In this document: positions 5,228 to 29,981 of the stretch, in pieces
Position numbering within the stretch: the stretch's first letter is position 1
How the letters are laid out: every line of letters begins with the position of its first letter
Origin: Candidatus Poribacteria bacterium
GTDB lineage: Bacteria > Poribacteria > WGA-4E > WGA-3G
DNA length: 47,369 nucleotides
Direction: 5' to 3'
Assembly (NCBI GenBank): GCA_022822085.1
Contig: JAJECK010000083.1
Span: forward strand, 1 to 47,369
Program-made: the position numbers and the translations under genes
Notes under the pieces: model-generated
Seen by the model: only the letters and a program-made list of their open reading frames with translations
Databases searched by the model: none
Told to the model about the DNA's origin: nothing

Positions 5228-5858
5228 AGACATTTTGACATTTAGTCTTTTCTTTATTTTGTTCGGGTTACTTGGAATTTCAACAGTGGTATCTGCCGAA
5301 AATCCTCCTGAGAATATCCTCAAGAACGGCGATTTTGACAATCAACTTGACCAATGGCACCACTGGACACATGAAAATGCAAATGCCAATTTTCTAACTG
5401 GAGGTAGAAAGGCTGAGCCTATAATTGGAAAAAATACAGCATATATCAATATAAATGATGCAGGCGATGCTCTTTGGCACATTCAGTTTTATCAACAACC
5501 TTTTACGCTTGAGAAAGACAATACTTACACATATAACTTGTGGGCAAAAAGTGAAAAACCCAGAAATCTAACAATGCGTATATTACATCAAGGCGATCCT
5601 TGGAATGAATATGCAAAGAAAACGATCAATCTTACTGAGTTGTGGACAGAATTTTTCATAACATTTAAGATGACTGCTGATGATGCAAATACCCGCGCAG
5701 GTATGATTATGGGTGGGCAGAAAGTTGATGTTTGGTTTGACCATATTCGTCTCTACGAAGGTGAACATTTTCAAGATATTGAAGGTGTAGAACCGTATTC
5801 TGTAAATCCAGATAGCAAATTAGCAACCACCTGGGCATCTCTAAAGAATCAACACTAA
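5196..5858 (+). CDS. Exported protein with carbohydrate-binding-like (CBM4/9-type) domain
   Basis: About 220 residues. The open frame extends upstream to 4998, but that part lies inside the lipoprotein gene in another frame. I chose the ATG at 5196 because GGAGG sits five bases before it; an ATG at 5211 is the alternative. The N-terminus then has a signal peptide (ILTFSLFFILFGLLGIS, then VSA). The mature part begins LKNGDFDNQLDQWHHW, the hallmark opening of CBM4/9-type beta-sandwich domains, and continues with GQKVDVWFDHIRLYEG near the end of the sandwich. It probably binds glycan outside the cytoplasm. The start inside the preceding lipoprotein gene suggests a functional pair. Confidence 0.7.
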   Translation: MTEKVMRNTNKDILTFSLFFILFGLLGISTVVSAENPPENILKNGDFDNQLDQWHHWTHENANANFLTGGRKAEPIIGKNTAYININDAGDALWHIQFYQQPFTLEKDNTYTYNLWAKSEKPRNLTMRILHQGDPWNEYAKKTINLTELWTEFFITFKMTADDANTRAGMIMGGQKVDVWFDHIRLYEGEHFQDIEGVEPYSVNPDSKLATTWASLKNQH

Positions 5859-5895
5859 TCATGTTAGAACACTAATTATTGATCTCCATACACTT

Positions 5896-6435
5896 ATGTC
5901 TAAACTTTACAAGACTATCACGCCGAAGCACCAGAAATTTATTTCAAATCAAAAAATATTCTTTGTCGCTACTGCAACAGCCGATAGCAGAATCAACCTT
6001 TCTCCAAAAGGAATGGATTCTTTGCGAGTTGTAAACCCAAACCGGATTGTATGGTTAAACGTAACAGGCAGTGGAAATGAAACGGCAGCTCACGTTCAAG
6101 AAAATCCTCGGATGACGCTGATGTTCACTGCATTTGAGGACAACCCTATGATCCTACGTCTGTATGGTAAAGCGAAAGCAATCCACAATGACGATGCAGA
6201 TTGGCAGCTACTCTTTCCGTTATTTCCTCCAATTCCTGGGGCAAGACAAATCTTTGATCTTAACGTAGATCTAGTACAAACTTCCTGCGGTATGGCAGTA
6301 CCTATTTTCGAATATGTCTGCGAGAGGGAACAGTTAAACACCTGGGCATCAAAGAAAGGTGAGGATGGGGTAAAGGAATATTGGAAAGAAAAGAACAGTG
6401 TTAGTCTTGATGGAAAACCGACACATTTTGTTTAA
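5896..6435 (+). CDS. Pyridoxamine 5'-phosphate oxidase-family (PPOX) flavoprotein
   Basis: 179 residues with the split-barrel FMN-binding pattern: FFVATATADSRINLSPKG near the N-terminus, then IVWLNVTGSGNETAAHVQEN and MTLMFTAFEDNPMILRLYG. Members bind FMN or F420 and act as general oxidoreductases; this one is too generic for a substrate call. It is not a canonical PdxH. It is cytoplasmic. It lies 37 bases after the CBM-like gene, with no clear ribosome site before the ATG. Confidence 0.8.
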   Translation: MSKLYKTITPKHQKFISNQKIFFVATATADSRINLSPKGMDSLRVVNPNRIVWLNVTGSGNETAAHVQENPRMTLMFTAFEDNPMILRLYGKAKAIHNDDADWQLLFPLFPPIPGARQIFDLNVDLVQTSCGMAVPIFEYVCEREQLNTWASKKGEDGVKEYWKEKNSVSLDGKPTHFV

Positions 6436-6465
6436 TATTTCAATACTTTATCTTTCTCATTCTTC

Positions 6466-6494
6466 TTGAGGGACCTACCCTAATTGTATAAAAT
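6466..6494 (+). promoter_or_regulatory. Possible promoter for the metalloprotease gene
   Basis: TTGAGG at 6466-6471 and TAAAAT at 6489-6494 are separated by 17 bases, just before the 6522 start. The match is moderate. Confidence 0.3.
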
Positions 6495-6521
6495 GAATAC
6501 AGATTACAACAATTAAAATTG

Positions 6522-9161
6522 ATGAGAAACCGTCTACAGAAATCACATTTACCAATAATGAAATTATATTTAATTGCTATCATCCCCCTATTTTTTTCTA
6601 TATTCTCAATAGTTTATGCATTACCACCCGATCCAGAACTACATAATGCAATCCAAACTGCACGAAGTTTTAAACACCTAAAACCGAGATATAACCCTAA
6701 TGAAATCGTGGAATGTGCTACAGACAGTTTTGTCACAATAGCCAAGAATTGGCGCAACCTACCATTAAAATATCGCAACGAACTGAAACCAATTTTTTTG
6801 AGACCCGGACTCCCTGGTAGTTTCTTTGGGGATATCCAGTTGTCAGAACATTTCAACACACCACACTTCAAGTTACATTATACCCGCATTGGACCTCATG
6901 CCCCGCCACTTGAAGATTTTCACCCACGAAATGGTGTTCCTGATTATGTTGATTTATGTGCAGATGCAATGGAACGTTCCTATCACGTCCAAATAGATCT
7001 AATGAATTTCAAAAAACCGTACATCGATTTTTGGGCTGCTCAAAATGGTGGAAACCATAAAATTGATGTGTATCTCTTTACATTTCCCGCCCTCGGCATC
7101 ACAACTGCAGATTGGTTTGAAGGTCGAGTGTTATCCACAGCGTTGACAATCGCCCCCTATTTCATGATTAATTCACGGATTTACGATTATGTTGGAAAAA
7201 TGGAAGGTATACGCTATCTTGAAACAACCTGCGCACATGAATTCCTGCACGGAATCCAGTTTGCATACAACGCATACATGCCGACATGGTTCATGGAGGC
7301 ATCCGCAACCTGGATTGAAGTGATGACCTACGATGGTGGACTTCTTGATGACGGTGATAATATCCCAGACCCAGATGAACCCAACGAAACAAATTCCTAT
7401 AACTACTACATTCATCAACTGCGCCGTTGGTTTATGATTCCAGATATTTCGCTTGAAAGTCGTATTGGTGATCACGAATACGGAACGGTAATTTGGGCAT
7501 TATATATGTCAGAAAGGTTCGGCTATGACACCATTCGCCAACTCTTCGCAAATTCCACTGACGGCAGTTATCGCGAGTTTGGTAATTTCTATGATGTCTT
7601 TACAGATAATGGAACGACACTGGCAGAAGCGTTCAAGACCTTTACTGTATGGAATTATTTTACAAATACCCGTGCTAACACAGGGACAGAAATTAAAGGG
7701 TATAGAAATGCAGAAAGGTTTCCACCCGTAGCAATACATCCGAATGATGTTCACAACAACTATCCGGTTCGAATTGAGTACGATTCAGAATCTATGCCTG
7801 AACATTTTTCTTCTCGGTATATTGTCTTTCGTCCAACAGGTATATTTCCTGAATTTGCCGTTAAGATAGATGGTGCTGACCTCGCGCCAATAGATATGAG
7901 TCAACTGACAATCTCAGACCGTGTAAAAATTGAGGGCGAACTTAGGAGACACACCAATTTAGGGTTGCGTGGATGGGCTGCAAAATTTATTGTCAGGAAA
8001 AGTAACGGGACTACAGAAATTAAAGAGGCATTTACTTTTCAAAAATCCCAAGAAGCACAGATGACCTTCAATGATTTTGGAGGTGACATCCGTGAAATCG
8101 TCCTCATTCTCATCAATATGCATCCCGATGTAGAACAGGTGATTATTCCAGGTGGCACTTTTGGCGGATCGGTTAGTGTCATGGCAGGTGTTCCACCGAA
8201 AGGTCAACTTTCTAATGCTGAAGTTCGACAAGGCGATAGAGGGCCAATAATAAACTGGGAGGTCAATGATTCAACAGGTATTCAAGAAATTGTTATTGTA
8301 AGAAAACGATTTGAAACAGTAAATGAAACTGATACACCGCAACCATTTCAATCTGCAGATGAAGTGCGTGCAGCTGTTGATATGGATGGAAACGGTATCG
8401 CTGAAGACGACATCAATATTGTTGGACGAGTTAACATCACACAAACTCAGTTTGAAGACACCTCTGTTTTTCAAGATATTGATCCGGCATTCACTGAGCC
8501 GATCGATGTTCATTACTTTTATGCGGTTGTTCCTGTCGACGAAATTGGAATTATGGGAACACCAATCATTGTACCAGAAAGCATAACACCAGCTGTGGAC
8601 ACAACAAACGAAGCCCCAGCATTTTTTATCCGGACAAGACCGATACAGACAGGTCAATGGCAAGTTGAAGTGCAAAGCACACGTTCTTTGATGAGTGCCC
8701 CTCAACTGACTATTGAAAGCCCAAACAGAGTCAACTCAAACATAAATTTAACACAAGAAACATCAACGACATGGCGTGGCATGTTTTACACAAACGGCTC
8801 CCCGAAGACAGGTATCTATCTCTATACAATAAGTGGGATAACGCCTTCAGGTATATCTGGTGATCAGATTTGGCAAGGTAAAACATTCAAATATGTAGCA
8901 AATAACACAAACCAGAATGTGTTGGTTACGCCAAATCCTGTACGTGCTGGACAAGGTAACCAACACATTACTTTTTTACCAAACGGTCTCTCCATTGAAA
9001 TCTACGATGTTACCGGTAATAGAATTAAGGTTATTGATAATGCTTCAAACTGGGATTGCACAAACCAAAACGGAGAGAAGGTGTGTGCCGGATTATACTT
9101 TTTCCGTGCAACTGATGGTAACGGTTTCCAATCTACAGGTAAATTCTCTGTTGTGAAATGA
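6522..9161 (+). CDS. Large secreted HExxH metalloprotease with C-terminal sorting-type domain
   Basis: About 879 residues. A signal peptide (KLYLIAIIPLFFSIFSI, then VYA) follows an internal ATG at 6558, so translation may start there rather than at 6522; neither has a strong ribosome site. Near residue 240 the zinc motif HEFLH is followed by WFMEASATWIE, where the Glu is the probable third ligand, as in MXAN_6640-type putative metalloproteases. Around residue 620 a DMDGNG loop may bind calcium. The last ~75 residues (TPNPVRAG, IEIYDVTGNRIK, GLYFFRATDGNG) form a FlgD-like/type IX-style sorting domain. The predicted role is an extracellular or surface peptidase. It overlaps the next lipoprotein gene by ATGA. 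Confidence 0.8.
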   Translation: MRNRLQKSHLPIMKLYLIAIIPLFFSIFSIVYALPPDPELHNAIQTARSFKHLKPRYNPNEIVECATDSFVTIAKNWRNLPLKYRNELKPIFLRPGLPGSFFGDIQLSEHFNTPHFKLHYTRIGPHAPPLEDFHPRNGVPDYVDLCADAMERSYHVQIDLMNFKKPYIDFWAAQNGGNHKIDVYLFTFPALGITTADWFEGRVLSTALTIAPYFMINSRIYDYVGKMEGIRYLETTCAHEFLHGIQFAYNAYMPTWFMEASATWIEVMTYDGGLLDDGDNIPDPDEPNETNSYNYYIHQLRRWFMIPDISLESRIGDHEYGTVIWALYMSERFGYDTIRQLFANSTDGSYREFGNFYDVFTDNGTTLAEAFKTFTVWNYFTNTRANTGTEIKGYRNAERFPPVAIHPNDVHNNYPVRIEYDSESMPEHFSSRYIVFRPTGIFPEFAVKIDGADLAPIDMSQLTISDRVKIEGELRRHTNLGLRGWAAKFIVRKSNGTTEIKEAFTFQKSQEAQMTFNDFGGDIREIVLILINMHPDVEQVIIPGGTFGGSVSVMAGVPPKGQLSNAEVRQGDRGPIINWEVNDSTGIQEIVIVRKRFETVNETDTPQPFQSADEVRAAVDMDGNGIAEDDINIVGRVNITQTQFEDTSVFQDIDPAFTEPIDVHYFYAVVPVDEIGIMGTPIIVPESITPAVDTTNEAPAFFIRTRPIQTGQWQVEVQSTRSLMSAPQLTIESPNRVNSNINLTQETSTTWRGMFYTNGSPKTGIYLYTISGITPSGISGDQIWQGKTFKYVANNTNQNVLVTPNPVRAGQGNQHITFLPNGLSIEIYDVTGNRIKVIDNASNWDCTNQNGEKVCAGLYFFRATDGNGFQSTGKFSVVK

Positions 9162-10000
9162 TGAAATATTTTTGGTTTAGTACAATAAATAATCTAATAA
9201 TCATATTTTTTCTTGCACTTGTTGGGTGTAGTCAAGAAGGACTGATTGATCCGCACGGTGAAACAAAACTTACACCGCCCTCTACAGTTGGAGCATTACA
9301 TGCAATAGATTTTCCAACAGATACAGGTTCTGCATGGACATATATCAATATTGATACGGAGAAGGAATTCACAGTACGAGTCAGAGGAACGCGAGATATT
9401 AGTGGTACAACGCACCGTCAACTGACCATCAGCACAATTACTCCCGTTGAATCTGATGAACCCAATCTTGTAACTGTAGACCATTTGGCAGCAAATGCAT
9501 TCTATTTTAGAACAGACACCGATTTTTTTGATGGATTCCCTTTCCCAATATTGGCAACCTACATCAACAAAACCCCGCAAGGAATAGTTGAATCTGCATT
9601 TGATGTATTTCTACATCCACTACAGAATCCGGTGTTTCACCAAAAGCATTTTCCAGTCCGTCGTCTGTGGGATTTTCCATTAGAAGTTGGAAAGGAATGG
9701 GTCGTTTTTGATAAAACCGCAGGAAACCCAGTATCTGTCACCCGGTTTGTCGCAGAGAAGGATGTGTCAGTCACAGTCCCAGCAGGTATTTACAGCACTT
9801 ATGTTGTCTACGAAGAAGTGATTTACGGTGATACAGAAGAACCTACGATACGTCTAATTAGTCCTCCAGCAGTCTATTGGGTTGCTCCATCTGTCGGGGT
9901 TGTGCAGTATCGATTCAGTCGTTATCGTGCCACAGACACATTTCAGACAGAGACATATCAACTCAAGAGTGTCCACCTTCCCGGTCCCCATACAGATTAA
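9158..10000 (+). CDS. Lipoprotein of unknown function
   Basis: 280 residues. A hydrophobic N-terminus ends in the lipobox ALVGC (Cys24), so this is an exported, lipid-anchored protein. The mature part (FPTDTGSAWTYINIDT, RGTRDISGTTHRQLTI, DVSVTVPAGIYSTYVVYEE, YWVAPSVGVVQYRF) looks like an all-beta domain seen in many uncharacterised lipoproteins that begin with a GxxWxY-type motif. I do not recognise a named family. Its ATG overlaps the stop of the metalloprotease gene (ATGA), which strongly suggests translational coupling. It could anchor, inhibit or assist that protease (inference). Confidence 0.7.
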   Translation: MMKYFWFSTINNLIIIFFLALVGCSQEGLIDPHGETKLTPPSTVGALHAIDFPTDTGSAWTYINIDTEKEFTVRVRGTRDISGTTHRQLTISTITPVESDEPNLVTVDHLAANAFYFRTDTDFFDGFPFPILATYINKTPQGIVESAFDVFLHPLQNPVFHQKHFPVRRLWDFPLEVGKEWVVFDKTAGNPVSVTRFVAEKDVSVTVPAGIYSTYVVYEEVIYGDTEEPTIRLISPPAVYWVAPSVGVVQYRFSRYRATDTFQTETYQLKSVHLPGPHTD

Positions 10001-10007
10001 TTTCATA

Positions 10008-11249
10008 ATGAAAACTCTTGCCCATAGGAACATCCCAATTACAATAATCGGTGGCGGAATACACGGTTGTTCAATTGCTCTCCGACTGTTACGCGACATG
10101 CCGGCTGCAGCAAAACACATTGCAATCGTAGACCGTCACCCAAAACCACTAACAGAATGGCGAAACAAAACCGAACGTCAAGGCATGACATTTTTGCGTT
10201 CACCTATAGTGCATCATGTTTCACCTGATCCATTAGGTATCGTAGAATTCGCAGAACACCACAACCGATCAAATGAATTTGCACCACCATATTCACAACC
10301 TTCAACTGAACTCTTTTGGGATTATTGTAAAGATGCGGTGACTGAACTTATGGATCAAAATATATACTATCAGTTTGAAGTATCAAAGTTGCATTGGAAT
10401 AAAGGCTCAGGCAAATATCCATTTCGATTGGTATCAAAAGATAATATTGGATTTCGAAGTAGTGCGGTTGTTCTTGCAGTCGGTTCTGATGATTGTGTAT
10501 ATATACCCTCAGAATTCATTGAATGGACACGTAGATTTCCTGGCAAAATAATACATTCATCTCAATTTTCCTTAGATAGTCTGAAAAATACAGATGGACG
10601 TAAGAAATTTGTAATAGTTGGAGGTGGATTGACTGCGGGTACGCTTGCAAAAAGCATCAGTGAACTGGGACACCAAGTGGTATTGATTGCACGGAAACGG
10701 TTGAAGACAGAACAGTTTGATTTTCCGCCAACCTGGTTAGGTCCTAAAGCGTTGACCAATTTTGCAAACGAATCAGATTTTCTACGACGGTATCACATTA
10801 TCAAGGAGAACAGAGGAGAAGGAAGCATCACACCTGACGTGATGGAAATACTAACAGATTCTACAAATATAGAAATCTATCCTGAAACTATTATACGCAA
10901 AATTCTCTCTGTAGGAGAAAACAAATTAGGTCAATGTCTACGAATGGAAACGACGCATGGAATGATTAATCATGTATCCGATGTTATCTTTGCGACAGGA
11001 TACAGATTTAATCTTCGTCATTACGGATTTTTGAAAGACTTAATGAAGCAGTACTCAATTCCTCTGATTTGCGGTCTGCCTATTTTAGATACCGATTTAC
11101 AATTCTGTCCAATTACGAATCTATTTGGTTCGGGAACTGTGGTTCAACTACAAGTCGGGCCTGCATCCAGTAACATTGCAGGTGCTAATCTTGCTTATGC
11201 ACGTATTCGTGAGAAACTATTAGCACGATTGCCGAAGAATTCTATATAA
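10008..11249 (+). CDS. FAD/NAD(P)-binding oxidoreductase, N-hydroxylating monooxygenase-like
   Basis: About 413 residues from the ATG at 10008. The frame is open further upstream, but only by running through the lipoprotein gene. A first Rossmann motif (PITIIGGGIHGCSIALRLL) binds FAD and a second (KFVIVGGGLTAGTLAKSI) probably binds NAD(P)H. The arrangement resembles flavin monooxygenases of the lysine/ornithine N-hydroxylase type; the C-terminal part has DVIFATGYRFNLRHYG, the ATGY-type motif of that group. The substrate is unknown. It starts seven bases after the lipoprotein stop, so it may belong to the same transcript as the protease, although it is a cytoplasmic enzyme. Confidence 0.75.
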   Translation: MKTLAHRNIPITIIGGGIHGCSIALRLLRDMPAAAKHIAIVDRHPKPLTEWRNKTERQGMTFLRSPIVHHVSPDPLGIVEFAEHHNRSNEFAPPYSQPSTELFWDYCKDAVTELMDQNIYYQFEVSKLHWNKGSGKYPFRLVSKDNIGFRSSAVVLAVGSDDCVYIPSEFIEWTRRFPGKIIHSSQFSLDSLKNTDGRKKFVIVGGGLTAGTLAKSISELGHQVVLIARKRLKTEQFDFPPTWLGPKALTNFANESDFLRRYHIIKENRGEGSITPDVMEILTDSTNIEIYPETIIRKILSVGENKLGQCLRMETTHGMINHVSDVIFATGYRFNLRHYGFLKDLMKQYSIPLICGLPILDTDLQFCPITNLFGSGTVVQLQVGPASSNIAGANLAYARIREKLLARLPKNSI

Positions 11250-11305: not shown

Positions 11306-12184
11306 TTATCGTGTTAGTGCATACGCGACAACATTCATACCTTGCTCAAATGCCCAACGTCGCTGTTCCAGACCGCCAGGACTACAAGGTCTTCCCTCCC
11401 ACGCACAATTCAGGTCACTCGGACAGAAGTACACCATAACCTTATCTTCATCCATAATAGCTTCATCAAAATCATATCCACGAATGAGTTTGTCTCCACC
11501 AAGATATTCATTATGGTCGTATAGTGTATGATAAATTGAATGGCTTAAGTCCAGTCGTTCAAATTTCTTCTCAGGATATATCCGGCGCATCATCTCAACA
11601 ATTTGTGGTTTGAATCGATTATATCTAATATCACAATCTTCAACATGTAAGAAGCCGCCGCGTTCAAAGTATTCTCTCAACTTGCGAATATGCGCATCTG
11701 TCAACCGCATTCCAGTACGAGTTCTTCCATGACCTGTCATGAAGATGAATGGATAGGAGTATAACCATTCATCTTCAATGTCTACATACTGTGGGTGTTT
11801 TCGTAGATTCACATTGATAGATGTATTTTCATCAAGTACCTGAGAGAATTTTAGGTCAGATATCCAACGGTAATAGTTAACGATATTCGTCCACCAATCA
11901 CCACCCGGATATTTTAGTCGTACGAATGTGAACTTTTCACCTGTCGGATCCATGCCAGGATGATTGTGTTCAATAATATCACGGGTTCCATATCGTGTTG
12001 AATAGTGAATATCACGAATATTATCGTAAGGGAGGTATTCTCCAAACTGAGATTGTGCTTCGGCGGAATTTAGCACCCCTCCTGCCGCAACAGCAGAAGT
12101 TGCAAGTCCGATGGTACTTTTTATGAAGGCGCGACGCGAGAAACGATTTGTGGTTTTTTCTGTTGGGTTTCTATTGATTGACAT
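11306..12184 (-). CDS. Tat-exported DUF4159 domain protein
   Basis: About 292 residues from the ATG at 12184, chosen because AGGAGG lies eight bases before it; an upstream in-frame ATG at 12190 is too close to that site. The N-terminus has a twin-arginine signal (SRRAFIKS) with a hydrophobic stretch ending AEA. The rest matches DUF4159: FTFVRLKYPGGDWWTN, FIFMTGHGRTRTG, LREYFERGGFLHVEDC and FEQGMNVVAYALTR. The domain looks like a glutamine-amidotransferase-type fold lacking known catalysis (from memory of the family). It is the last gene of the operon 16705-11306. A second DUF4159 protein is at 43292. Confidence 0.8.
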   Translation of the reverse strand: MSINRNPTEKTTNRFSRRAFIKSTIGLATSAVAAGGVLNSAEAQSQFGEYLPYDNIRDIHYSTRYGTRDIIEHNHPGMDPTGEKFTFVRLKYPGGDWWTNIVNYYRWISDLKFSQVLDENTSINVNLRKHPQYVDIEDEWLYSYPFIFMTGHGRTRTGMRLTDAHIRKLREYFERGGFLHVEDCDIRYNRFKPQIVEMMRRIYPEKKFERLDLSHSIYHTLYDHNEYLGGDKLIRGYDFDEAIMDEDKVMVYFCPSDLNCAWEGRPCSPGGLEQRRWAFEQGMNVVAYALTR

Positions 12185-12212
12185 GTCCATATCCTCCTAA
12201 TTATAGTGACTT

Positions 12213-13823
12213 CTAATAAGGTTTACCTAAAAGTTCGAATGTAACACTTTGTGCTGCTCCACCTTGCATTTTTGTAGAGGTTCGTGTGCTTGCAATTGCG
12301 CGAATTCTTTGATTTGCGATTCCGTGATCTTTGAGAGCTTTGGCGGCTGCTTCTGCACGTTGTGTAGCAAGAAGTTTGTTTGCTGCTGGATCACCCTCTT
12401 TTCGTGTATGTCCTACAACTCTAAGGTAATACTGCGGAAAAGACTTTAGTTTTGATGCGATATCTGCCAATGCTCGTTTGCTACCGGGAAGAATTCGTGC
12501 ATTCCCACGTCCAAATTGGATCGGTTCTATTTTCATCGCTGCAACAGGGGCAAGTGAGTTCCAATTTGCTTCAGATAACGGATTAAGGGCAACTTCTTCT
12601 CGAACCTTCTCCTCTGCCACATTTGAAGTATCAACCAGAATTCCCTCTAACCCGGCTGCACCGCCTGTATTCAGCACACCAGGATGGAACTCATCATGAT
12701 TTAGTGAACGTAAGATTCCCTCAAAGTAAAGATTTCCGTAATTCCCCGATAGCGGGTCTGAAGTAAGAGATTTTGTTTTAACAAGGACTTGCATTATTTT
12801 TCCAATCATCGTCTCAAGTTTTTCTGTGTCTTTCGCTTCGGGTCCTGAGACGACACCAAAATGTGCGTAATTCTCAACCGTGTTCCGCCATTCAATTCCT
12901 TTTACCAATTGACTTGCTTCATTTCGCTTAAGAGGAGCATCACCGTATTGTTTTGCATCCGATTCAATCAAGGATAACAATCCTTCAGTTTGATTTGAAT
13001 AGTCATAGTTCGCACGAAGATACGCTTGGACAACATGTGTGACAAGTTCGCGTTGAGAGTCTAAAAATTCGCGTTGAACTACCAAGACATCAACGATATA
13101 TCCTTTTAGTTTTGAACTATCTAACAGCAGATGAACACCATCAATAGCAAGTGCCTTCGTTACATAAGGTTCCCATAGGACATAAGCTGCAGGTTCATCA
13201 GGGTCTGCAGATTTTAGTTTTTTGTATACATCTTCCGAGCCGTTTGCATTTGATGCCCAAGAATTAGGTAAACTGGGAAGACTCATCGTATTAATCATAA
13301 TACGTGCAAGTGTTTCACTCGGGGAATCAGGTGTTAATACGATACGTGCTTTTGGATTACTCAAATTTGGAATGCTGGCTACACCGCGTTTGTGTGCGAC
13401 GATTGCATCCGCCCCTTTAGATTCATCTATGACAAGAACGATAGAACCCGGATATTCTCCAATTACACTTCCTGCTTTAAGATAAGCATCAATGGTAAAG
13501 ACAGCCATTTGTACTTTACCGTTCTTTAGGTCCCGCGCTCTACGGACATAATCTGCTTTATCATCAACAAAGGTGAGTTTAATTGACTGTCTATCAAGTA
13601 AGTTCTTAACTGCGTCAGAACGCAGAATAGCATAACCTGGAAAAGAGTCGTGAGCAACTTTTATCTCGTGGTCATACTTTTGCGTGCTGGTTTTCTGCAC
13701 GAGTTTGTCGTGTCTAAATCCGAGCCGTGGTTCAACGACAAACTTGTAGACAAGTCCTAATATGCCGATAATTATCAACCAACTTGCCACCATTACGATT
13801 CTACTTCTTGTTTTGGCTTCCAT
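12213..13823 (-). CDS. Periplasmic substrate-binding protein fused to OmpA domain
   Basis: 536 residues. One N-terminal transmembrane helix (IVMVASWLIIIGILGLVYKF) would leave the rest in the periplasm. Residues ~50-300 form an NMT1/SsuA-type binding-protein fold (VAHDSFPGYAILRS, VQMAVFTIDAYLKAG, SETLARIMINTM). Residues ~430-536 form an OmpA-like peptidoglycan-binding domain (FGRGNARILPGSKRALADIA, VVGHTRKEGD, LLATQRAEAAAKAL). Databases carry this architecture as 'phosphate ABC transporter substrate-binding/OmpA family'. No permease or ATPase gene is nearby, so it may act as a sensor or scaffold rather than in uptake (inference). AAGGA precedes the ATG. Confidence 0.8.
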   Translation of the reverse strand: MEAKTRSRIVMVASWLIIIGILGLVYKFVVEPRLGFRHDKLVQKTSTQKYDHEIKVAHDSFPGYAILRSDAVKNLLDRQSIKLTFVDDKADYVRRARDLKNGKVQMAVFTIDAYLKAGSVIGEYPGSIVLVIDESKGADAIVAHKRGVASIPNLSNPKARIVLTPDSPSETLARIMINTMSLPSLPNSWASNANGSEDVYKKLKSADPDEPAAYVLWEPYVTKALAIDGVHLLLDSSKLKGYIVDVLVVQREFLDSQRELVTHVVQAYLRANYDYSNQTEGLLSLIESDAKQYGDAPLKRNEASQLVKGIEWRNTVENYAHFGVVSGPEAKDTEKLETMIGKIMQVLVKTKSLTSDPLSGNYGNLYFEGILRSLNHDEFHPGVLNTGGAAGLEGILVDTSNVAEEKVREEVALNPLSEANWNSLAPVAAMKIEPIQFGRGNARILPGSKRALADIASKLKSFPQYYLRVVGHTRKEGDPAANKLLATQRAEAAAKALKDHGIANQRIRAIASTRTSTKMQGGAAQSVTFELLGKPY

Positions 13824-13864
13824 GTCTTTGTCCTTGTTTGTACCTTCATGTTAAAAGCCGACTG

Positions 13865-14791
13865 CTATTTTCCCATTCGTCGGAAAATCAAAAAACCAGC
13901 AATAACTACAATCAGTCCTATCAGAATCCATCCACTCTTATTACCACTGGGTTGTTGAACAGGTTGCTTTATTGGCTGTTTAGGTGTTGATGTAGATGGT
14001 TTTTGCTGTTGAGATTGTGGTGTTCTTATATTAGTTGTGGTAATTGCAGAATTACTTGGAGGCATTGTAAGGCGTTGTATAAGGTCTAAAGCAATTTTTT
14101 CAGAAAGTGGTGCAATGTCCTCAAAAGCATCCTCACCATCCATATCAGTCCCAGTGCTACCAGTTTCAGCAAGGATTTGTGATACTGCCGCGACGAGTTC
14201 ACCGGGATTATCCGCTCTACGATAACTGTCTGCATCTTTTGCTAACAGATGATCTGTTTGCATATCAACCCCAATAACATCAACACGGACTTGTCTGTCT
14301 AATATCTCTGGCGTGTATTGTGCGACTTTTTCCTCGTCTTGAGCGACACCGTCCGTTACAATCAATAATCGATAGTTTCCATAATTGTACTGTTTTTCTC
14401 TCTGTTCAAGTAGCCGATTTGCGCCAATACGCATATATTTTCCAAGAGGTGTGCCACCCCCCGGTTGCGGTAAATCAATCGCAGCCATCAATCGTTCTGT
14501 ATTCTTCGGTCCGAGTGGATATACCCAATCATCTTGCACATTACTACCACTGAATACGAGCAAACCGATATGTGTATTCTTCGGTACTTTAGCGAGTACT
14601 TCTCTAAGAGCTTCTTTAGCAGCGTCCATCTTTGATTTCGTTTGGTCAGCCCGAAACTTCTCTTTCATTGAGCCAGATGCATCAAGAATAACGATGATAT
14701 TTTCTGTATGAAGGTCAGTTTCCGCATTACATAATCCTATTGTAGCAAAAATAAGGAAAATGGAAAGAAATGATGCAATTGCTTGTTTCAC
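13865..14791 (-). CDS. VWA-domain protein with C-terminal membrane helix
   Basis: 308 residues with an N-terminal signal peptide, a von Willebrand factor A domain and a C-terminal helix (SGWILIGLIVVIAGFLIF) followed by Arg and Lys. The metal-ion-dependent adhesion site is complete: D37-A-S39-G-S41, T114 (GGGTPLG) and D147 (LLIVTDG). A Gln/Pro/Thr/Ser-rich linker precedes the helix. It should display a VWA domain on the outer face of the membrane. The start is GTG, supported by AGGAG six bases upstream. It is 24 bases after the preceding binding protein-OmpA gene and 41 before the next, so the genes form an operon. Confidence 0.85.
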   Translation of the reverse strand: MKQAIASFLSIFLIFATIGLCNAETDLHTENIIVILDASGSMKEKFRADQTKSKMDAAKEALREVLAKVPKNTHIGLLVFSGSNVQDDWVYPLGPKNTERLMAAIDLPQPGGGTPLGKYMRIGANRLLEQREKQYNYGNYRLLIVTDGVAQDEEKVAQYTPEILDRQVRVDVIGVDMQTDHLLAKDADSYRRADNPGELVAAVSQILAETGSTGTDMDGEDAFEDIAPLSEKIALDLIQRLTMPPSNSAITTTNIRTPQSQQQKPSTSTPKQPIKQPVQQPSGNKSGWILIGLIVVIAGFLIFRRMGK

Positions 14792-14815
14792 AAAATGCTC
14801 CTATGTTGTTACAAA

Positions 14816-16705
14816 CTAAAAGTCAAAGTCAGATGCGGCGACTGCTTCTGCAGAAACCTTAATGAGTGCAAATTCTACCCGTCTGTTTTCTGCGGCCTCT
14901 GTAGGACTGGTCGGTTTCGGAATAATAGGTTCTCTAATCCCTACACCGACGGGAACAATTTGATCTGTGTCAATACGTGCATTTTTCTTACGCGCATAAT
15001 CAATAATGGATTGTTTCACCGCTTCACCACGTTGTTCAGAGAGTTTGAGAGCGGCGCGCATCACTTGGTAAGGGTTTTCAACATCGGAACTATCGTCGAA
15101 TTTCCGTTGATCAATCAGCCTGATAAGTTCCGCAGTATTTTCAAGACTAAAAGGTTTTCCGTTTAGGAAATATCTGTAATTTCCTCGTGTGCCTGTCCGT
15201 TTAAGAAATCCTTTTGACAAGCCAGTTTTTACCAAAACACTTAATGTTCTTGATGGATCGCTATGCCCTTTGATGGCTATAGCAGCGTTTCCATATTTTG
15301 ATGCAAGTTCTACAACTCTGTCAAATTCATCACTATACCGAGTAGCACTAAACGTATCCTGATTTGCATCAAACTGGATTGTAAAGGAAATAAGTGTTTT
15401 TTCGTCCAGAACTGCATCCTCATTAAAGGATTCAATTTCTGCCCGGACTGCTTCCTTTTTAAATCGAGTCTGTTTTAGCTGCGTAGGAGCATCAACGGTT
15501 GTAGCGAGTAAAGTCTTAAATGTGTTGGAATTGAAATTAATATCTGAAGGAAGAAGAGCGTATCTCTGGCTTGCAAATCCCCAGTTAACCGCCATATCCA
15601 ATCCCGCTTTATTGAATCCTTCAAAACCAGTGATAGTATTGCTTGGATCGTTGAAAAACGCAACATTACCGGGTTGTCCGACAAAAGTGCAATCAGCGAT
15701 TAATCCGTGTGCATCCTCTTCAAGCGTAGGCAATATATCTTTTCCGTAGATATTCTGCATCATTGTCAACAGTTTATTATATTGTGTGGAACCACTTCTT
15801 TCATAAGCTTTTTTCAAGGATATAACTTCTTCTGCTCCCTTCAAATAACCAGCAAAGAATTTTTCAATAAATGGTTTATATTGATCGTAGAAGTCTTTCC
15901 TGCAAGCATATACATCTGCAATTGAACGTGAGAGTGTTGCGGTACTGACGACGACATGAGCACCTTGTACGGTGCCTTCAGCTCCTGTTCCTGTATTATC
16001 TGGACCACCTGTCAAACCTATCATATCTGGCGTAATTACAAAACATCCTGCGATAGATTTGTCGTTTCGGAAACGTTCTGCTGGACCTTTTGCACCTGTA
16101 AGTTCATCTACCCACACAATTTGGACATTTGACTTGGAAAGACGTGCGGTTTTCAGCATATCGTAAAGCATCCCAACATGAGGACCGCCTTTCTGAATAG
16201 CAATCTTTTTTCCGTTTAGATCAGAAATCTTACGGATAGTTGCTCGTCCAACAAAATGGTCGCCTGCTGACCAGGTCAGTTGTCCAAAAACAACGGGTTT
16301 CGTGCGTGCATCCCGTCCGATAACTTCACTTGCCTGAGCGATCATTCTAAACGTACCGCGTAGAATTGGCGTTTTCCCAGAGAGATAGTCACGAACTTGT
16401 TGTTGGAAATTGTCACCTGGTACTAGTTCTAAGTTAAGACCCTGTTTTTCCATGATCGTACCGGGTTTGGTTTTTAGTCCACCGTTGGCATGGAACAGTG
16501 CTGCTTCTCCACCCCATGTAATATACGGTACGACTAATGGTGAAATTGATGTGACACTGTTTATTGTCACGGGTCCAACTGCATCAGCAAAACGTTCCTG
16601 TGCATTTGCTGGAAACACAAAGCAAAGAAACATTAGACAAATTAAATTATATTTCAAGATTTGGTATAATACTTTCCTACTATGGAATATGGAATGCTTT
16701 TTCAT
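14816..16705 (-). CDS. Exported substrate-binding protein fused to OmpA domain (larger paralog)
   Basis: 629 residues. A signal peptide ends about FPANA. Residues ~40-380 are a periplasmic-binding domain of the ABC-type taurine/nitrate/NMT1 kind (LNGKKIAIQKGGPHVGML, VWVDELTGAKGPAERF, WGFASQRYALLP). The C-terminal third is OmpA-like: FTIQFDANQDTFS, IKGHSDP, LSEQRGEAVKQSI and ENRRVEFALI. An insertion of about 60 residues sits between the GHSDP and LSEQRGEA elements, unlike a standard OmpA domain. This is the first gene of the operon 16705-11306. GAGGAA precedes the ATG. Confidence 0.8.
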   Translation of the reverse strand: MKKHSIFHSRKVLYQILKYNLICLMFLCFVFPANAQERFADAVGPVTINSVTSISPLVVPYITWGGEAALFHANGGLKTKPGTIMEKQGLNLELVPGDNFQQQVRDYLSGKTPILRGTFRMIAQASEVIGRDARTKPVVFGQLTWSAGDHFVGRATIRKISDLNGKKIAIQKGGPHVGMLYDMLKTARLSKSNVQIVWVDELTGAKGPAERFRNDKSIAGCFVITPDMIGLTGGPDNTGTGAEGTVQGAHVVVSTATLSRSIADVYACRKDFYDQYKPFIEKFFAGYLKGAEEVISLKKAYERSGSTQYNKLLTMMQNIYGKDILPTLEEDAHGLIADCTFVGQPGNVAFFNDPSNTITGFEGFNKAGLDMAVNWGFASQRYALLPSDINFNSNTFKTLLATTVDAPTQLKQTRFKKEAVRAEIESFNEDAVLDEKTLISFTIQFDANQDTFSATRYSDEFDRVVELASKYGNAAIAIKGHSDPSRTLSVLVKTGLSKGFLKRTGTRGNYRYFLNGKPFSLENTAELIRLIDQRKFDDSSDVENPYQVMRAALKLSEQRGEAVKQSIIDYARKKNARIDTDQIVPVGVGIREPIIPKPTSPTEAAENRRVEFALIKVSAEAVAASDFDF

Positions 16706-16822: not shown

Positions 16823-18310
16823 CTAACGTGAATGATTAGGGTTACGTGGATATATTAAGATTGCATCGGAAATAGCGCGTCCTTGAAATTTTGGCATAGG
16901 TCGAACACGACGATTACCTCGGGCAGACATCGTTCTTCTATCTAATACAATCTTCTCTTCAACCTGTTTCTTTTGAGAATCAGTTTTCGCATTTGCCTCT
17001 GTTTTTTTCTCAGTGGTATTATTTTTAGCTACTACATCTCCTTGTTTGTCAGGTGTTGTTAGTTTCGTTTGATCTGTTTTTTTTTCTGTGGGTGCAGGTT
17101 TAGGTTTTTCCTCTGAAGTGGGACCGGGAGGTGGCTTACGTTTGATACTTACAATTTTATTCCTAATAACCATCATAGACGAGGAACCACCATCTAAGTT
17201 GACTGCATCCGTTGCCCCCCATTTCTGAAAGAGTCTTGCAAGTTTATCCAACTTTACACCCCGTCGCACTTTTGGATCAGCACCAGTAATTGTAACAAAA
17301 AGCAGTGTGCCATCAGCTTTTTTACCAACTGCAGTGCGGGGATGCCAGAAACTATGGAATGGGGCATCAAAACCTTCACGATCATACGCTTTTGTCGTTG
17401 CTATGACACCATTTCGTATGAGTAAGGGACCACCGCCGATAATGTGTGTAAATTTTTCCCATAGATTACTGGCTCCAACTCGTTCAGGAATAACGTTCTC
17501 TCGGATATTGATGCTATCACCAAGTACGATATGATCTAACAATACTTGACGTTTTCTACCGTTTGCGGACAGAATATATCCGTCATTTGGTATTTGTGAA
17601 CTACCTTGTCTATCATATATTTTTGTTACTTTATCGTTTTTAACAACTATTTCAACGCCATCATGCATCGTCAGTGTAGTATTGTGAAAGTGTGGACGGT
17701 AAAGTACAAGTTCGTTTCTCGTGCGTCCACGATTTATACCGTCAATTTCAACAATAGTTCCATCAGACAATACAATTTCATGTTGTAAACTTATTCTATC
17801 AATATAAGTTTCAATTTTGCCATTTTTATCATTGAAGGCAACAACACCACGCCCTTGTTCTGGTTCACTAATCCATTCACCCGCAATTTTCAATGCTCCG
17901 ACAGATTCGCCTTTGAAAGTGCCGGACATCTCATAGTATCCTCCATTGATTGCAATGGGTGCTCTATTTCGTAGGGCAATTGATTGTAGATATTCAGTTC
18001 CAATTGCTGCTCCGAGTGCACTAAACGGTCGGATTTCTACAGCATCTGGTTTCACTGATAGAACATTTGTCAGAACACCATCGTCCAATATCTGTCGGTG
18101 AACAACACCGGGAAACACTTGTTCTGTTTCATCGCTCTTGACAGGGTCCGTATATGATTTTACATATTCGGGCACTTTTTTCAAAGGAACAACTTTACCT
18201 ACCCAAATACCAATAGCGAAAAAAATCAGGAAACCAATTATAGTCCAAGTGCGCGGGTAGTGTTTGATGAAATCAACAAATCTGCGTGCTAAAAAGAATA
18301 TGTCAAACAT
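16823..18310 (-). CDS. Phosphodiester glycosidase (NAGPA-domain) membrane-anchored protein
   Basis: About 495 residues from the ATG at 18310; an upstream TTG at 18322 is less likely. One N-terminal transmembrane helix (TIIGFLIFFAIGIWVGKVV) points the rest outward. The central domain is PF09992-like: RAPIAINGGYYEMSGTFKGE, FHSFWHPRTAVGKKADGTLL and the active-site-type NLDGGSSSMMVI. Such domains cleave N-acetylglucosamine-1-phosphodiester or related bonds. A Lys/Thr/Pro-rich low-complexity segment of ~80 residues follows. The gene lies 62 bases after purB on the same strand, so read-through is possible, but the functions seem unrelated. Confidence 0.8.
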   Translation of the reverse strand: MFDIFFLARRFVDFIKHYPRTWTIIGFLIFFAIGIWVGKVVPLKKVPEYVKSYTDPVKSDETEQVFPGVVHRQILDDGVLTNVLSVKPDAVEIRPFSALGAAIGTEYLQSIALRNRAPIAINGGYYEMSGTFKGESVGALKIAGEWISEPEQGRGVVAFNDKNGKIETYIDRISLQHEIVLSDGTIVEIDGINRGRTRNELVLYRPHFHNTTLTMHDGVEIVVKNDKVTKIYDRQGSSQIPNDGYILSANGRKRQVLLDHIVLGDSINIRENVIPERVGASNLWEKFTHIIGGGPLLIRNGVIATTKAYDREGFDAPFHSFWHPRTAVGKKADGTLLFVTITGADPKVRRGVKLDKLARLFQKWGATDAVNLDGGSSSMMVIRNKIVSIKRKPPPGPTSEEKPKPAPTEKKTDQTKLTTPDKQGDVVAKNNTTEKKTEANAKTDSQKKQVEEKIVLDRRTMSARGNRRVRPMPKFQGRAISDAILIYPRNPNHSR

Positions 18311-18372
18311 AATATCTGACAAGTACTTTCACTGTTCCAATTATAGTTACCAGCATTCACAATCTATATTTC

Positions 18373-23992: not shown

Positions 23993-26500
23993 ATGAGAAG
24001 ATTCGGAACTCAAGGTCCTGTCAATTCCGAAGAACACTATGTAGTATCACGTAGTGATGAACTTGCGGATTACATTGACCGCTTGAAACAAGGACGATAC
24101 AATGTGCTTTTTGCACCACGTCAAAGTGGAAAGACGACATTCTTCAAGGAGGCACTCAAGGTGCTTGTGGAAGAAGACTCATCATTTTTCCCTATTCAAC
24201 TCAATTTTGAAGAATATAAAAATCGCACATCGGATCAATTCTACGTTGACATCTATAACGATATATGTGAGGAAATTGAGTATTTCATAGAAAGTCGAAA
24301 TTCAGAACTGACTCAAAAGTATCTTGAATTTATATCCAGTCCAAGAATTACTGATTCTGTATCTATGAGAAGATTCTTCAGTCAGTTGCCTGATATACTC
24401 AATAGTGATAAACACATATCTTCATCACCTCGAATTGTGATTATTATTGATGAGTTTGATGGGATACCGCAAGCCGTTGTCAATGACTTTCTGCATACAC
24501 TCCGAAGAATTTATCTTACCGATAGAAATGTTCGCTCTCCATATAGTGTCAGCATTGTCGGTGTAAAAAACATTACTCAACTAAATTATGATCGTTCTAT
24601 TTCCCCATTTAATATACAAGATGAGTTCACTTTGCCAAACTTTACGCATCAACAGGTGCGTGAATTATTCGCTCAATATACGGATGAAGTTGGCCAATTA
24701 ATTTCTCCGGAAGTGCTTGAAGGACTGCATAAACAGACTGCTGGACAACCATTCCTTGTCAATAGAATTGCTCAAATTCTTACAGATGAACTTGATATTC
24801 CAAAGAGCGGGACAATTCAGATGCCGCACTTTCTACAAGCGCATGCCATTCTTCTTGAAGAACGCAACACAAACATTGACCATCTGACAACAAATATTCG
24901 CAGAGATCGTAGGTATGAATCCATGTTGATGGATATAGCATTTTCTGGTGATGGGAAACGTTTTAACTTACGGAATGAGATTATTAGTGATTTAGTAACT
25001 TATGGTGTCATAGAAAAAGGCGAGGATGGACTATGTAAAATCTTAAATCCAATTTATCTTTATTGTATTATTCAAACATTTCAACCACCAGGAAATGGGC
25101 TTGAAAGTGAATATTTCTCCGATGATGGTCCAATTGATTTTACCGGATATTTGACATCTTCTGGAAAGATACAGATGGACGCACTAATAGATAATTTCAA
25201 GAATTTTATTGCGCGTGCTGGATATAGAATACTACAAGTGCCAGGGACACCACAAGAATATGTCGGACAATATTTGCTGTCAGCGTATTTAGATCAATTC
25301 GTACGGACTATAGGGGCATCAATTCGATTGGAAGTTCAGACAGGAAGAGGTAGATCAGACATTATCATTTTTCATAACGGTGTGCAATATATAATTGAAA
25401 CAAAAATATGGCGAAGTGAACGACGTTATAAGTTAGGAAAGCAGCAACTTGCAGAATATATGAAATTGGAAGGGACTACAGAAGGATATTATGTAGTCTT
25501 TGACCATCGCGATAACCCAAATCCATTAGTTGAAACTGACACCTTCGAAAACCTTACTATTCGGAGTTATGTAATACCTGTATTGCAAAAACCTCCATCC
25601 CAAAATTTATTAGAACAACAGTTATCGTATATATCACAGGAAACACACAATTTGGAGTTGAGTATGAAATCTGAAACGAACTGGTACCCTGCAGAACCTG
25701 ATCTCAAGACTGTTTGTGAAAAATTCGAAGATCCGATATATTCGCTATCTCAAGCGGAAATACCTGCTATTATCCTAAGAAATGCATATCCTCCTGAACA
25801 CTGTCAAGGATTGATCGATAGATTTACAAATATGGGTTTGATGCGAGATGAGGCAGATACCAATACAGCAGACAAGCGTACACGTATTGATATCGGTACA
25901 AGTCTGGGTAATCGTGGAAGCAATAAACCCGGCTTTTTATCACATGCAGAAACTACTCACCATCTTTTCCAATTCCTTTTTGACGGTTTTGATAATCCTG
26001 TTGACCTGATTTATGAATCCCTTTCTGCGCTTTCTCCTGGTAAAGAAGTTAAGGTTGCGCGTGAACCAGATGGTTCTTTATATGGACCTGCTATTTTTCG
26101 TATCCACTATGAAACGCATAGTTACAAACCGCACATTGATAGTGTTAAGTACCGTGAGAAACGTACCGATTATTCAGTCTATCGTTTTCAACATCAGTTT
26201 GCAGGTGTCTTGTGCGTTCAGAATGCTGATGCTAATGGTAAAGGGACGCAAGCCATCCTTCATCGTTGTCTCTGGTCTGAAGAAGTTCAACCGTATATTG
26301 CTGAAGAAACATTTGACAAATATGCTGCAAAGAACGATATAGAACAGTGTCAAGTCGATTTACAACAAGGAGATCTCTATTTTTTTAATACCCGTTGTAT
26401 CCACGAAGTACCTGCAGTTGAAGGTTCGAGGGCAAGAATTGTATTGGCTGTATTCATCGGTTATTCACCTGACGACAGTGAAGTGTATGTTTGGTCGTGA
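23993..26500 (+). CDS. AAA-like ATPase + PD-(D/E)XK nuclease + 2OG-Fe(II) oxygenase fusion
   Basis: 835 residues with three parts in one uninterrupted frame. Residues ~1-300 form an AAA-like (AAA_35/AAA-ATPase) P-loop domain with Walker A APRQSGKTT (K47) and Walker B IVIIIDEFDG (D153, E154). Residues ~390-530 carry a PD-(D/E)XK-type core (D456 in GRSDIII; E469-T-K471 in YIIETKIW), as in PDDEXK_9 domains that usually follow such ATPases. Residues ~558-835 form a prolyl-4-hydroxylase-like 2OG oxygenase: PPEHCQGLIDRF, H714-I-D716 and distal H804 with R813/R815. The first two parts are a known pairing of unknown function; the third is unexpected. AAAGG precedes the ATG. It ends the lysC operon. 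Confidence 0.8.
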   Translation: MRRFGTQGPVNSEEHYVVSRSDELADYIDRLKQGRYNVLFAPRQSGKTTFFKEALKVLVEEDSSFFPIQLNFEEYKNRTSDQFYVDIYNDICEEIEYFIESRNSELTQKYLEFISSPRITDSVSMRRFFSQLPDILNSDKHISSSPRIVIIIDEFDGIPQAVVNDFLHTLRRIYLTDRNVRSPYSVSIVGVKNITQLNYDRSISPFNIQDEFTLPNFTHQQVRELFAQYTDEVGQLISPEVLEGLHKQTAGQPFLVNRIAQILTDELDIPKSGTIQMPHFLQAHAILLEERNTNIDHLTTNIRRDRRYESMLMDIAFSGDGKRFNLRNEIISDLVTYGVIEKGEDGLCKILNPIYLYCIIQTFQPPGNGLESEYFSDDGPIDFTGYLTSSGKIQMDALIDNFKNFIARAGYRILQVPGTPQEYVGQYLLSAYLDQFVRTIGASIRLEVQTGRGRSDIIIFHNGVQYIIETKIWRSERRYKLGKQQLAEYMKLEGTTEGYYVVFDHRDNPNPLVETDTFENLTIRSYVIPVLQKPPSQNLLEQQLSYISQETHNLELSMKSETNWYPAEPDLKTVCEKFEDPIYSLSQAEIPAIILRNAYPPEHCQGLIDRFTNMGLMRDEADTNTADKRTRIDIGTSLGNRGSNKPGFLSHAETTHHLFQFLFDGFDNPVDLIYESLSALSPGKEVKVAREPDGSLYGPAIFRIHYETHSYKPHIDSVKYREKRTDYSVYRFQHQFAGVLCVQNADANGKGTQAILHRCLWSEEVQPYIAEETFDKYAAKNDIEQCQVDLQQGDLYFFNTRCIHEVPAVEGSRARIVLAVFIGYSPDDSEVYVWS
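25654..25666 (+). promoter_or_regulatory. Possible internal ribosome site and start before the 2OG-oxygenase part
   Basis: GGAG at 25654-25657 lies six bases before an in-frame ATG at 25664 (Met558), exactly at the domain boundary. Starting there would give a free ~278-residue oxygenase. Confidence 0.4.
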
Positions 26501-29492: not shown

Positions 29493-29543
29493 TTTACCAC
29501 TGTTGTTAAATCACTTCTGAAATATACCTTTACCAACGATCAA

Positions 29544-29596
29544 AATAGGAGTTCACACAACAATGCTTGTTATCTCAGGTGGCGTGAACTCCTATT
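29544..29596 (+). terminator. Hairpin after the first WD40 gene
   Basis: A perfect 13-bp inverted repeat, AATAGGAGTTCAC (29544-29556) and GTGAACTCCTATT (29584-29596), with a 27-base loop. There is no T-run after it, so classical intrinsic termination is doubtful; it may stabilise the mRNA end or be a repeat. Confidence 0.4.
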
Positions 29597-29701
29597 CACT
29601 TCATTAATCCCTCTATATCATATTTGATAATTCCACTATTTTAACACTCAATCACATTAGTTTTTGTATTACACACAAAAAAATGTCTATTTCAGTATAT
29701 T

Positions 29702-29817
29702 TTATAGTAAAACCCACAATTACATGGACATTGGCGCGGTTAGGAAACCTCGCCAGCGTTATGGTGTGGGGTTTGTTGTTCATTGAAATGTGAACATATT
29801 TTCGGATTTTACTATAA
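29702..29817. repeat. MITE-like element, family 3
   Basis: A 116-bp segment bounded by TTATAGTAAAACCC and GGATTTTACTATAA. Its middle contains GGTTAGGAAACCTCGCCAGCG, shared with the family 2 elements at 20042 and 41619, although the ends differ. No coding capacity. Confidence 0.7.
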
Positions 29818-29981
29818 TGTGTGCTTTATAATCAATGACACTTCTGGTATTGTTGTAATTCAACTGCACAGAATTGTGCACAATGATGTGAGATGTACAT
29901 TTACGTGCAGATTTACTATTTTCCAGATACTTACCCGATGAATTACCCTCACGTGAACAATTATAATTACAAAGTTATATA

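What the first reader, a model, noticed from the sequence alone, without database searches (positions are those of the whole stretch)
11306..16705. Envelope operon: binding protein-OmpA, VWA, binding protein-OmpA, Tat-exported DUF4159
Four minus-strand genes with short gaps (24, 41 and 28 bases) encode exported proteins. Two fuse a solute-binding domain to an OmpA peptidoglycan-binding domain; one displays a VWA domain; one is a DUF4159 protein sent by Tat. No transporter is present. This looks like a wall-bound sensing or assembly system rather than uptake (inference).
Basis: partly seen in the sequence, partly recalled or inferred. Interest (0 to 1): 0.6.

Follow-up and report, generated by a model that had tools for sequence, protein, structure and literature searches.

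The report
Periplasmic half of PspA-AAA envelope system
These genes are the outward-facing half of a little-studied bacterial envelope system whose other half, an ESCRT-like membrane-coating protein and its AAA motor, lies elsewhere in the genome; this lineage has dropped the transporter that other phyla keep, which suggests the binding proteins sense or anchor rather than feed.

Summary
In detail: four same-strand genes (gaps 24, 41, 22 bases) encode SBP1-OmpA, VWA, SBP2-OmpA and a Tat-type DUF4159 protein. Corrections: (1) The unit is SBP1-VWA-SBP2; DUF4159 is a resident neighbour, kept in place in relatives without the trio and absent from 38 of 38 foreign loci with room. (2) In other phyla the trio opens an ordered nine-gene operon, SBP1-VWA-SBP2-FAM7-PspA-SBP3-permease-ABC ATPase-AAA (all nine in 19 of 26 roomy loci). 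(3) In the window's genome FAM7, PspA copies, a new protein P598 and AAA lie on another contig; the cognate permease and SBP3 were found in no family member. SBP1, P598 and FAM7 agree in 53 of 57 family genomes. SBP1's OmpA domain keeps the wall-binding residues (77 of 77); SBP2's has Arg at the Asp site (74 of 74). I read it as the sensing/anchoring arm of an ESCRT-III-like PspA-AAA membrane-remodelling machine, uncoupled from transport here. One published passage (Ravi 2024) covers the operon type; the VWA, the Asp-to-Arg swap and the ABC-less split form were not found in print in my searches.

The parts
14816..16705 (-). SBP1: exported SsuA/TauA-type binding domain (aa 53-391 = 15533-16549) + OmpA-like domain (aa 436-616 = 14858-15400) with a ~75-residue conserved stretch between the two wall-binding residues; Asp483 codon 15257-15259, Arg559 15029-15031
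   Evidence: invariant D483/R559/N607/R609 in 77 of 77; codons
13865..14791 (-). VWA protein: signal peptide, VWA domain with intact MIDAS (D-x-S-x-S, T, D), C-terminal transmembrane anchor
   Evidence: Pfam; MIDAS residues in 74 of 74 homologues; TM by hydropathy in homologues and by reading the sequence
12213..13823 (-). SBP2: N-terminal membrane anchor (about 13740-13802), SBP domain related to SBP3, OmpA-like domain (12288-12536) with Arg474 (12402-12404) in place of the wall-binding Asp
11306..12190 (-). DUF4159 protein with Tat-like signal: resident neighbour, probably co-transcribed here, not part of the conserved module
   Evidence: 117 bits; Tat motif 39 of 39; present without SBP1, collinear in SBP1-less genomes; 0 of 38 foreign loci
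16823..18322 (-). NAGPA-domain protein: flanking resident gene, marks one side of the site of the cassette
9882..11249 (+). FAD/NAD-binding oxidoreductase, convergent flanking gene, other side of the site

Best explanation
SBP1-VWA-SBP2 is the periplasmic half of a two-locus form of a conserved PspA (ESCRT-III superfamily)-AAA+ envelope system. SHOWN by sequence: gene set, order, co-occurrence, domain folds, conserved sites. INFERRED mechanism: SBP1, a soluble periplasmic SsuA/TauA-type receptor, docks on peptidoglycan through its OmpA domain; SBP2, held in the inner membrane by its N-terminal helix, and the membrane-anchored VWA protein (metal site) form the receiver at the membrane; SBP2's OmpA-like domain, with Arg in place of the wall-binding Asp, more likely binds a partner than the wall. 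Ligand binding or a change in the wall-membrane connection is passed by the membrane coiled-coil protein FAM7 to PspA filaments, which coat or repair the membrane and are disassembled by the AAA+ ATPase. In most phyla an SBP3-permease-ATPase ABC unit belongs to the system. The window's family lacks SBP3 and permease, has extra PspA copies in some genomes and has added P598, so the binding proteins there most likely act as sensors/anchors.
For: Nine-gene order in nine phylum-level groups outside Poribacteria; among the 44 foreign loci, counting those with room: VWA 42/42, SBP2 38/38, FAM7 34/34, PspA 30/33, SBP3 25/29, permease 24/29, ABC ATPase 24/27; all nine 19/26. Window genome: AAA-P598-PspA x3-FAM7 on contig C68. 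In g3 relatives FAM7-P598 sit directly after SBP2, in g1 they flank PspA-AAA: this ties the two halves. 53 of 57 family genomes agree on SBP1/P598/FAM7; 7 independent pairs, P598 the same way in 5-6, opposite in 0, median p 0.031. PspA profile: the eight best PDB hits are all Vipp1/PspA (4.5e-5 to 4.1e-4). AAA profile: p97/Cdc48 1.3e-31, CdvC 2.2e-10. SBP1 fold Z 26.1 to TauA. Site conservation. Permease and SBP3 absent from the family.
Against: No experiment; ligand unknown. PspA and AAA also occur in family genomes without SBP1 (66 and 65 of 84 phylum genomes), so the SBP arm is optional. In g3 FAM7/P598 are next to SBP1, so joint loss there is expected from linkage; unlinked joint absence covers only about two lineages (g1). 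FAM7 shows no detectable kinship with PspA/Snf7 (hhalign 2.3%). PspA scores barely pass (34.4 vs 33.9) or miss the Pfam cut-off. Most foreign versions keep an ABC transporter, which fits uptake there. The ABC ATPase itself was not searched for across the family.
Confidence: 0.6

Rival explanations
1. A wall-docked high-affinity importer of a sulfonate/taurine/nitrate-like solute: SBP1 and SBP2 capture ligand at the wall for an ABC transporter (own or borrowed), with PspA-AAA maintaining the membrane around it.
For: Linked SBP3, permease and ABC ATPase in most foreign loci; permease nearest TauC/SaoP, ATPase nearest nitrate/taurine types; SBP1 fold nearest TauA/SsuA; an unlinked TauC-like permease exists in the window genome (G000:C55).
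Against: Cognate permease in 0 of 58 family genomes at 1e-8 and SBP3 in 0 of 57, while SBP1/SBP2 stay under strong purifying selection. The unlinked permease at E<=1e-14 occurs in 7 of 57 genomes (six with SBP1; G030 without) and in none of the one- to three-contig SBP1 genomes G080, G081, G083.
Confidence: 0.2
2. The four genes are a self-contained wall-bound sensing unit including DUF4159.
For: Short gaps and common strand; DUF4159 stays beside the trio in the poribacterial family loci seen, downstream in g1/g2 and upstream in g3.
Against: DUF4159 matches in 68 of 84 phylum genomes against 41 for SBP1; it is collinear with the same flanks in five family genomes without SBP1 (L155, L156, L158, L159, L160); on other contigs in G015, G017, G024, G025, G026; 0 of 38 foreign loci.
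Confidence: 0.12
3. The trio is a remnant of the nine-gene operon on the way to loss, with no present function.
For: ABC part absent, operon split, patchy presence (36 of 58 family genomes).
Against: dN/dS 0.04-0.09 for all genes; invariant key residues; co-occurrence with P598, a gene found only in this family among the 84 phylum genomes (36 genomes, all in f1).
Confidence: 0.05

Closest known systems
PspA/Snf7-TM + AAA+ + ABC ATPase + permease + 'PBPB and OmpA' operons (Ravi et al. 2024, mSystems, PMC11237479, section 18; example OGG56892.1, not seen by me)
   Same: PspA homologue, classical AAA+ protein, ABC ATPase and permease, SBP-OmpA protein in one operon: this matches the nine-gene form in foreign loci
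   Different: That passage names no VWA, no second SBP-OmpA with the Asp-to-Arg swap, no fixed order, no ABC-less split form and no P598; 'vWA' and 'von Willebrand' have 0 occurrences in its main text. Its supplement could not be read.
ESCRT-III/Vps4 (CdvB/CdvC) systems
   Same: ESCRT-III-superfamily protein encoded with an AAA+ ATPase (PspA profile hits Vipp1/PspA; AAA: CdvC 2.2e-10 and CDC48 5e-11); PspA copies in tandem in some genomes
   Different: AAA+ is p97/Cdc48-like with a long N-terminal region without P-loop; linked to periplasmic binding proteins. Makarova et al. [quoted passage not shown]
SsuABC/TauABC-type importers
   Same: SBP fold (Z 26.1 to TauA), permease and ATPase types in foreign loci
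   Different: SBPs fused to OmpA domains; permease and SBP3 missing in the window's family
CmpC/NrtC regulatory SBP-like domains
   Same: Precedent for an SBP domain used for regulation (structures 9u9z, 9uai, 8wm7 rank among SBP1's matches, Z 21-23); the regulatory role is taken from entry titles and recall
   Different: There fused to the ABC ATPase; here periplasmic and fused to OmpA
MotB/TssL-type inner-membrane OmpA proteins (recalled)
   Same: SBP2: N-terminal membrane anchor + C-terminal OmpA-like domain
   Different: Wall-binding Asp replaced by Arg in 74 of 74

Membership tests
PspA-AAA-ABC-SBP/OmpA operon type (Ravi 2024) | PspA homologue in the system | tested here: met
   PspA_IM30 34.4 bits, cut-off 33.9; PDB profile hits Vipp1/PspA. 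Not linked to the window locus in the window's own genome
PspA-AAA-ABC-SBP/OmpA operon type (Ravi 2024) | AAA+ protein with two AAA domains, the N-terminal one inactive | tested here: inconclusive
   C-terminal AAA clear, with P-loop and DE Walker B; N-terminal region has no P-loop and no Pfam hit, so a dead AAA domain is plausible but not shown
PspA-AAA-ABC-SBP/OmpA operon type (Ravi 2024) | Linked ABC permease and ATPase | tested here: not met
   Not met in the window's genome; permease in 0 of 58 family genomes at 1e-8. Met in 24/29 (permease) and 24/27 (ATPase) foreign loci with room. Hence filed as a variant
PspA-AAA-ABC-SBP/OmpA operon type (Ravi 2024) | SBP fused to OmpA | tested here: met
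PspA-AAA-ABC-SBP/OmpA operon type (Ravi 2024) | Snf7 homologue with a TM segment | tested here: inconclusive
   FAM7 mostly has two predicted TMs and a helical-looking tail but no detectable kinship to PspA or to any PDB chain
OmpA peptidoglycan-binding domain (SBP1) | Asp and Arg that bind diaminopimelate (roles recalled) | tested here: met
   D483 and R559 in 77 of 77; binding itself not tested
OmpA peptidoglycan-binding domain (SBP2) | Asp and Arg that bind diaminopimelate (roles recalled) | tested here: not met
   Arg at the Asp site in 74 of 74; Ala or Ser in the divergent G015, G025, G026 forms; Asp in 0 of 9 rows of A2
SsuA/TauA ABC importer | Cognate permease/ATPase present | tested here: not met
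   Permease not met in the window's family; ABC ATPase not searched across the family
VWA (MIDAS) proteins | DxSxS...T...D | tested here: met
   74 of 74 at each of five positions
ESCRT-III/Vps4 | Filament formation and ATP-driven disassembly | not testable with these tools
   needs biochemistry

The most novel reading that the evidence does not exclude
A bacterial ESCRT-like PspA-AAA+ machine is controlled from outside the membrane by peptidoglycan-anchored solute-binding proteins that have been cut loose from transport: ligand or wall state sensed by SBP1/SBP2/VWA is signalled across the membrane to gate membrane remodelling, with the family-specific P598 replacing the ABC unit as the link.
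Probability: 0.3. Interest if true: 0.8.

Novelty: new variant of a known kind. Interest (0 to 1): 0.6.

Why it matters
PspA/Vipp1 proteins are ESCRT-III relatives, and what tells them when and where to act outside the classic Psp pathway is an open question. A conserved nine-gene operon in at least nine other phylum-level groups puts two wall-oriented binding proteins, a VWA protein and an ABC unit beside PspA and an AAA+ ATPase. The poribacterial form, which keeps the binding proteins but lacks the cognate permease and SBP3, makes it directly testable whether the SBP arm signals rather than feeds. The invariant Asp-to-Arg change in SBP2 is a precise residue to test.

Tried and rejected
Rejected: DUF4159 as a core part. 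Rejected: 'no relatives have a transporter'. Rejected: both OmpA domains binding the wall in the canonical way. Tried without result: Pfam/NCBIfam for P598 (no usable hit) and FAM7 (no hit over a cut-off); AlphaFold of P598 gave pLDDT 57, too poor for a fold search, so none was run; FAM7 versus PspA by hhalign (2.3%); FAM7 profile against PDB (best E 0.13); promoter scan no better than shuffles (15 found, mean 14.0); SBP1 by sequence against PDB, none. Literature searches that gave nothing closer than Ravi 2024: (DUF4159: 0 papers); Popp 2022 (PMC9239133) passages only.

Limits of the counts: the first gene calling missed genes in GC-rich loci because long spurious ORFs overlapped them; the counts come from a six-frame profile search with profiles retrained partly on the same loci. 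The 80 loci are the best of 211 relatives of SBP1, so the more distant 131 were not seen. The 10 kb flank cuts many loci before AAA (AAA seen in 23 of 44 foreign loci). Tree: 57 of 58 family genomes; G067 left out because its AAA gene is split over contigs; G031 and G037 entered with partial AAA. The four discordant genomes are G032, G039, G050, G054; three are 73-86% complete; G039 is 95% complete, but its P598-AAA contig starts just before P598, where FAM7/PspA would be expected. Searches covered 57 of the 58 family genomes. The G000:C55 permease neighbourhood was not examined. Of the alignments for residue counts only rows of loci L075-L154 with profile coverage above 0.7 were used.

Full report
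What is there. The window is contig C79 of a 5.63 Mb genome in 158 contigs, related to named Candidatus Poribacteria records. Four minus-strand genes run from 16705 to 11306 with gaps of 24, 41 and 22 bases. They encode SBP1 (629 aa), a VWA protein (308 aa), SBP2 (536 aa) and a DUF4159 protein (294 aa). Pfam and NCBIfam support each label. SBP1's OmpA part is below detection in Pfam but is found by NCBIfam and carries the OmpA signature residues. Its AlphaFold model (pLDDT 83.7, pTM 0.80) gives a TauA/SsuA-type binding domain at residues 55-391 (TauA 6ssy Z 26.1, rmsd 3.5, 290 aligned; SsuA 2x26 Z 24.0). All genes show strong purifying selection (dN/dS 0.04-0.09 against G045).

The conserved unit is three genes, not four. 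SBP1 was found in 41 of 84 phylum genomes (36 of 58 in the window's family), DUF4159 in 68 of 84. In five family genomes without SBP1 (L155, L156, L158, L159, L160) the flanks PurB-NAGPA and the oxidoreductase lie collinear around DUF4159 alone. In g1 the trio lies between NAGPA and DUF4159; in g3 it lies on the other side of DUF4159. In 38 loci from other phyla with room, DUF4159 was never seen.

The rest of the system. Relatives in the same phylum but outside the family carry, near or after SBP1-VWA-SBP2, an unknown 260-aa protein (FAM7), a PspA/IM30-like protein, a third SBP, a BPD_transp_1 permease, an ABC ATPase and an AAA protein, in varying completeness. A scan of the genome-contig collection with the SBP1 alignment gave 211 relatives; the best 80 were kept, 36 poribacterial and 44 others. 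The others come, by record title, from Verrucomicrobiota, Lentisphaerota, Hydrogenedentota, Planctomycetota, Thermodesulfobacteriota, Omnitrophota, Myxococcota, Pseudomonadota and CSSED10-310, plus an unnamed bacterium. There the same nine genes follow in one order on one strand: among loci with enough room VWA 42/42, SBP2 38/38, FAM7 34/34, PspA 30/33, SBP3 25/29, permease 24/29, ABC ATPase 24/27; all nine in 19 of 26 loci with at least 9.9 kb. One locus, L123, lists SBP2 before VWA in the six-frame table.

The split form in the window's family. In the window's genome FAM7, three PspA-like genes, a 600-aa protein without known relatives (P598) and the AAA gene form a second cluster on contig C68. 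In the single-contig relative G045 the two clusters are about 2.0 Mb apart. In g3 genomes FAM7-P598 follow SBP2 directly and PspA-AAA lie elsewhere. PspA and AAA occur in nearly all family genomes with or without SBP1, but SBP1, P598 and FAM7 come and go together: of 57 family genomes 33 have all three, 20 none, 4 are discordant. On an AAA tree, 7 independent pairs differ in SBP1; P598 goes the same way in 5-6 and never the other way (median p 0.031). Much of this comes from g3, where the genes are adjacent; the unlinked evidence is the two SBP1-less lineages of g1 (G030/G036 and G029/G040/G044).

The transporter. The cognate permease matched in 0 of 58 family genomes at E<=1e-8. A profile search found only weaker matches in 12 of 57; seven of these, at 1.5e-15 to 7.4e-18, are an unlinked permease of the same broad type, on C55 in the window's genome (one of 19 BPD_transp_1 matches there). 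SBP3's profile hits nothing in the family except SBP2 itself (36 hits).

Anatomy and mechanism. SBP1 keeps the residues of a wall-binding OmpA domain (D483, R559, N607, R609) in 77 of 77 homologues. SBP2 has Arg at the Asp site in 74 of 74, with the second Arg kept in 73 and a gap in one; more divergent forms have Ala or Ser. VWA keeps its metal site in 74 of 74. FAM7 mostly has two N-terminal hydrophobic stretches and a charged tail. The PspA profile's eight best PDB hits are Vipp1/PspA entries; the AAA profile hits p97/Cdc48 and NCBIfam CDC48 and CdvC. I infer a periplasmic sensing/anchoring arm (SBP1 on the wall, SBP2 and VWA at the membrane), a membrane link (FAM7) and a cytoplasmic remodelling core (PspA, AAA). 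Ligand, contacts and direction of signalling are not shown.

Known and new. Ravi et al. 2024 (PMC11237479; [quoted passage not shown] The window's system is a variant of that kind. Not found in print: the VWA member, the paired SBP-OmpA proteins with the Asp-to-Arg change, the fixed nine-gene order, and the ABC-less split poribacterial form with P598. Their supplement could not be read, so parts may be listed there. Makarova et al. [quoted passage not shown] the AAA here is Cdc48-like rather than Vps4 proper, so this is not a contradiction.

Verdict. Real, conserved and larger than first seen; a new variant of a little-described kind. The claim that the trio belongs to the PspA-AAA system is strong (about 0.85, my estimate); the sensing mechanism is plausible but untested (overall 0.6).

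Noticed in passing
window 23993-26500 (+): 835-aa protein with an AAA_35-type NTPase domain (aa 8-259) and a WelO5-like Fe/2OG halogenase domain (aa 576-835, E 2.3e-24): an unusual fusion, followed by four WD40-repeat genes at 26604-37508.
   Followed up: no
window 43292-44773 (+): A second, longer DUF4159 protein (493 aa) whose match is split in two stretches; similar split matches on contigs C122 and C59 of the same genome.
   Followed up: no
window 6519-9161 (+): 880-aa protein with a CHU_C/Por-type C-terminal sorting tail, hinting at type IX-like secretion; conserved beside the locus in relatives.
   Followed up: partly
L061 (G000:C68) 5742-8061, L070, L073: Tandem PspA-like paralogues vary in number within the genus, some with in-frame stops in the aligned stretch.
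   Followed up: partly
L053 (G015), L054/L055 (G005): A second, divergent lineage of the same operon (SBP1 about 35% identical) in the same phylum, with one more unknown ~320-aa gene between SBP2 and PspA.
   Followed up: partly
L093 16823-18619 (P598): Family-specific, mostly helical 600-aa protein with an invariant IHDTWGHQWQE motif and no known relatives.
   Followed up: partly
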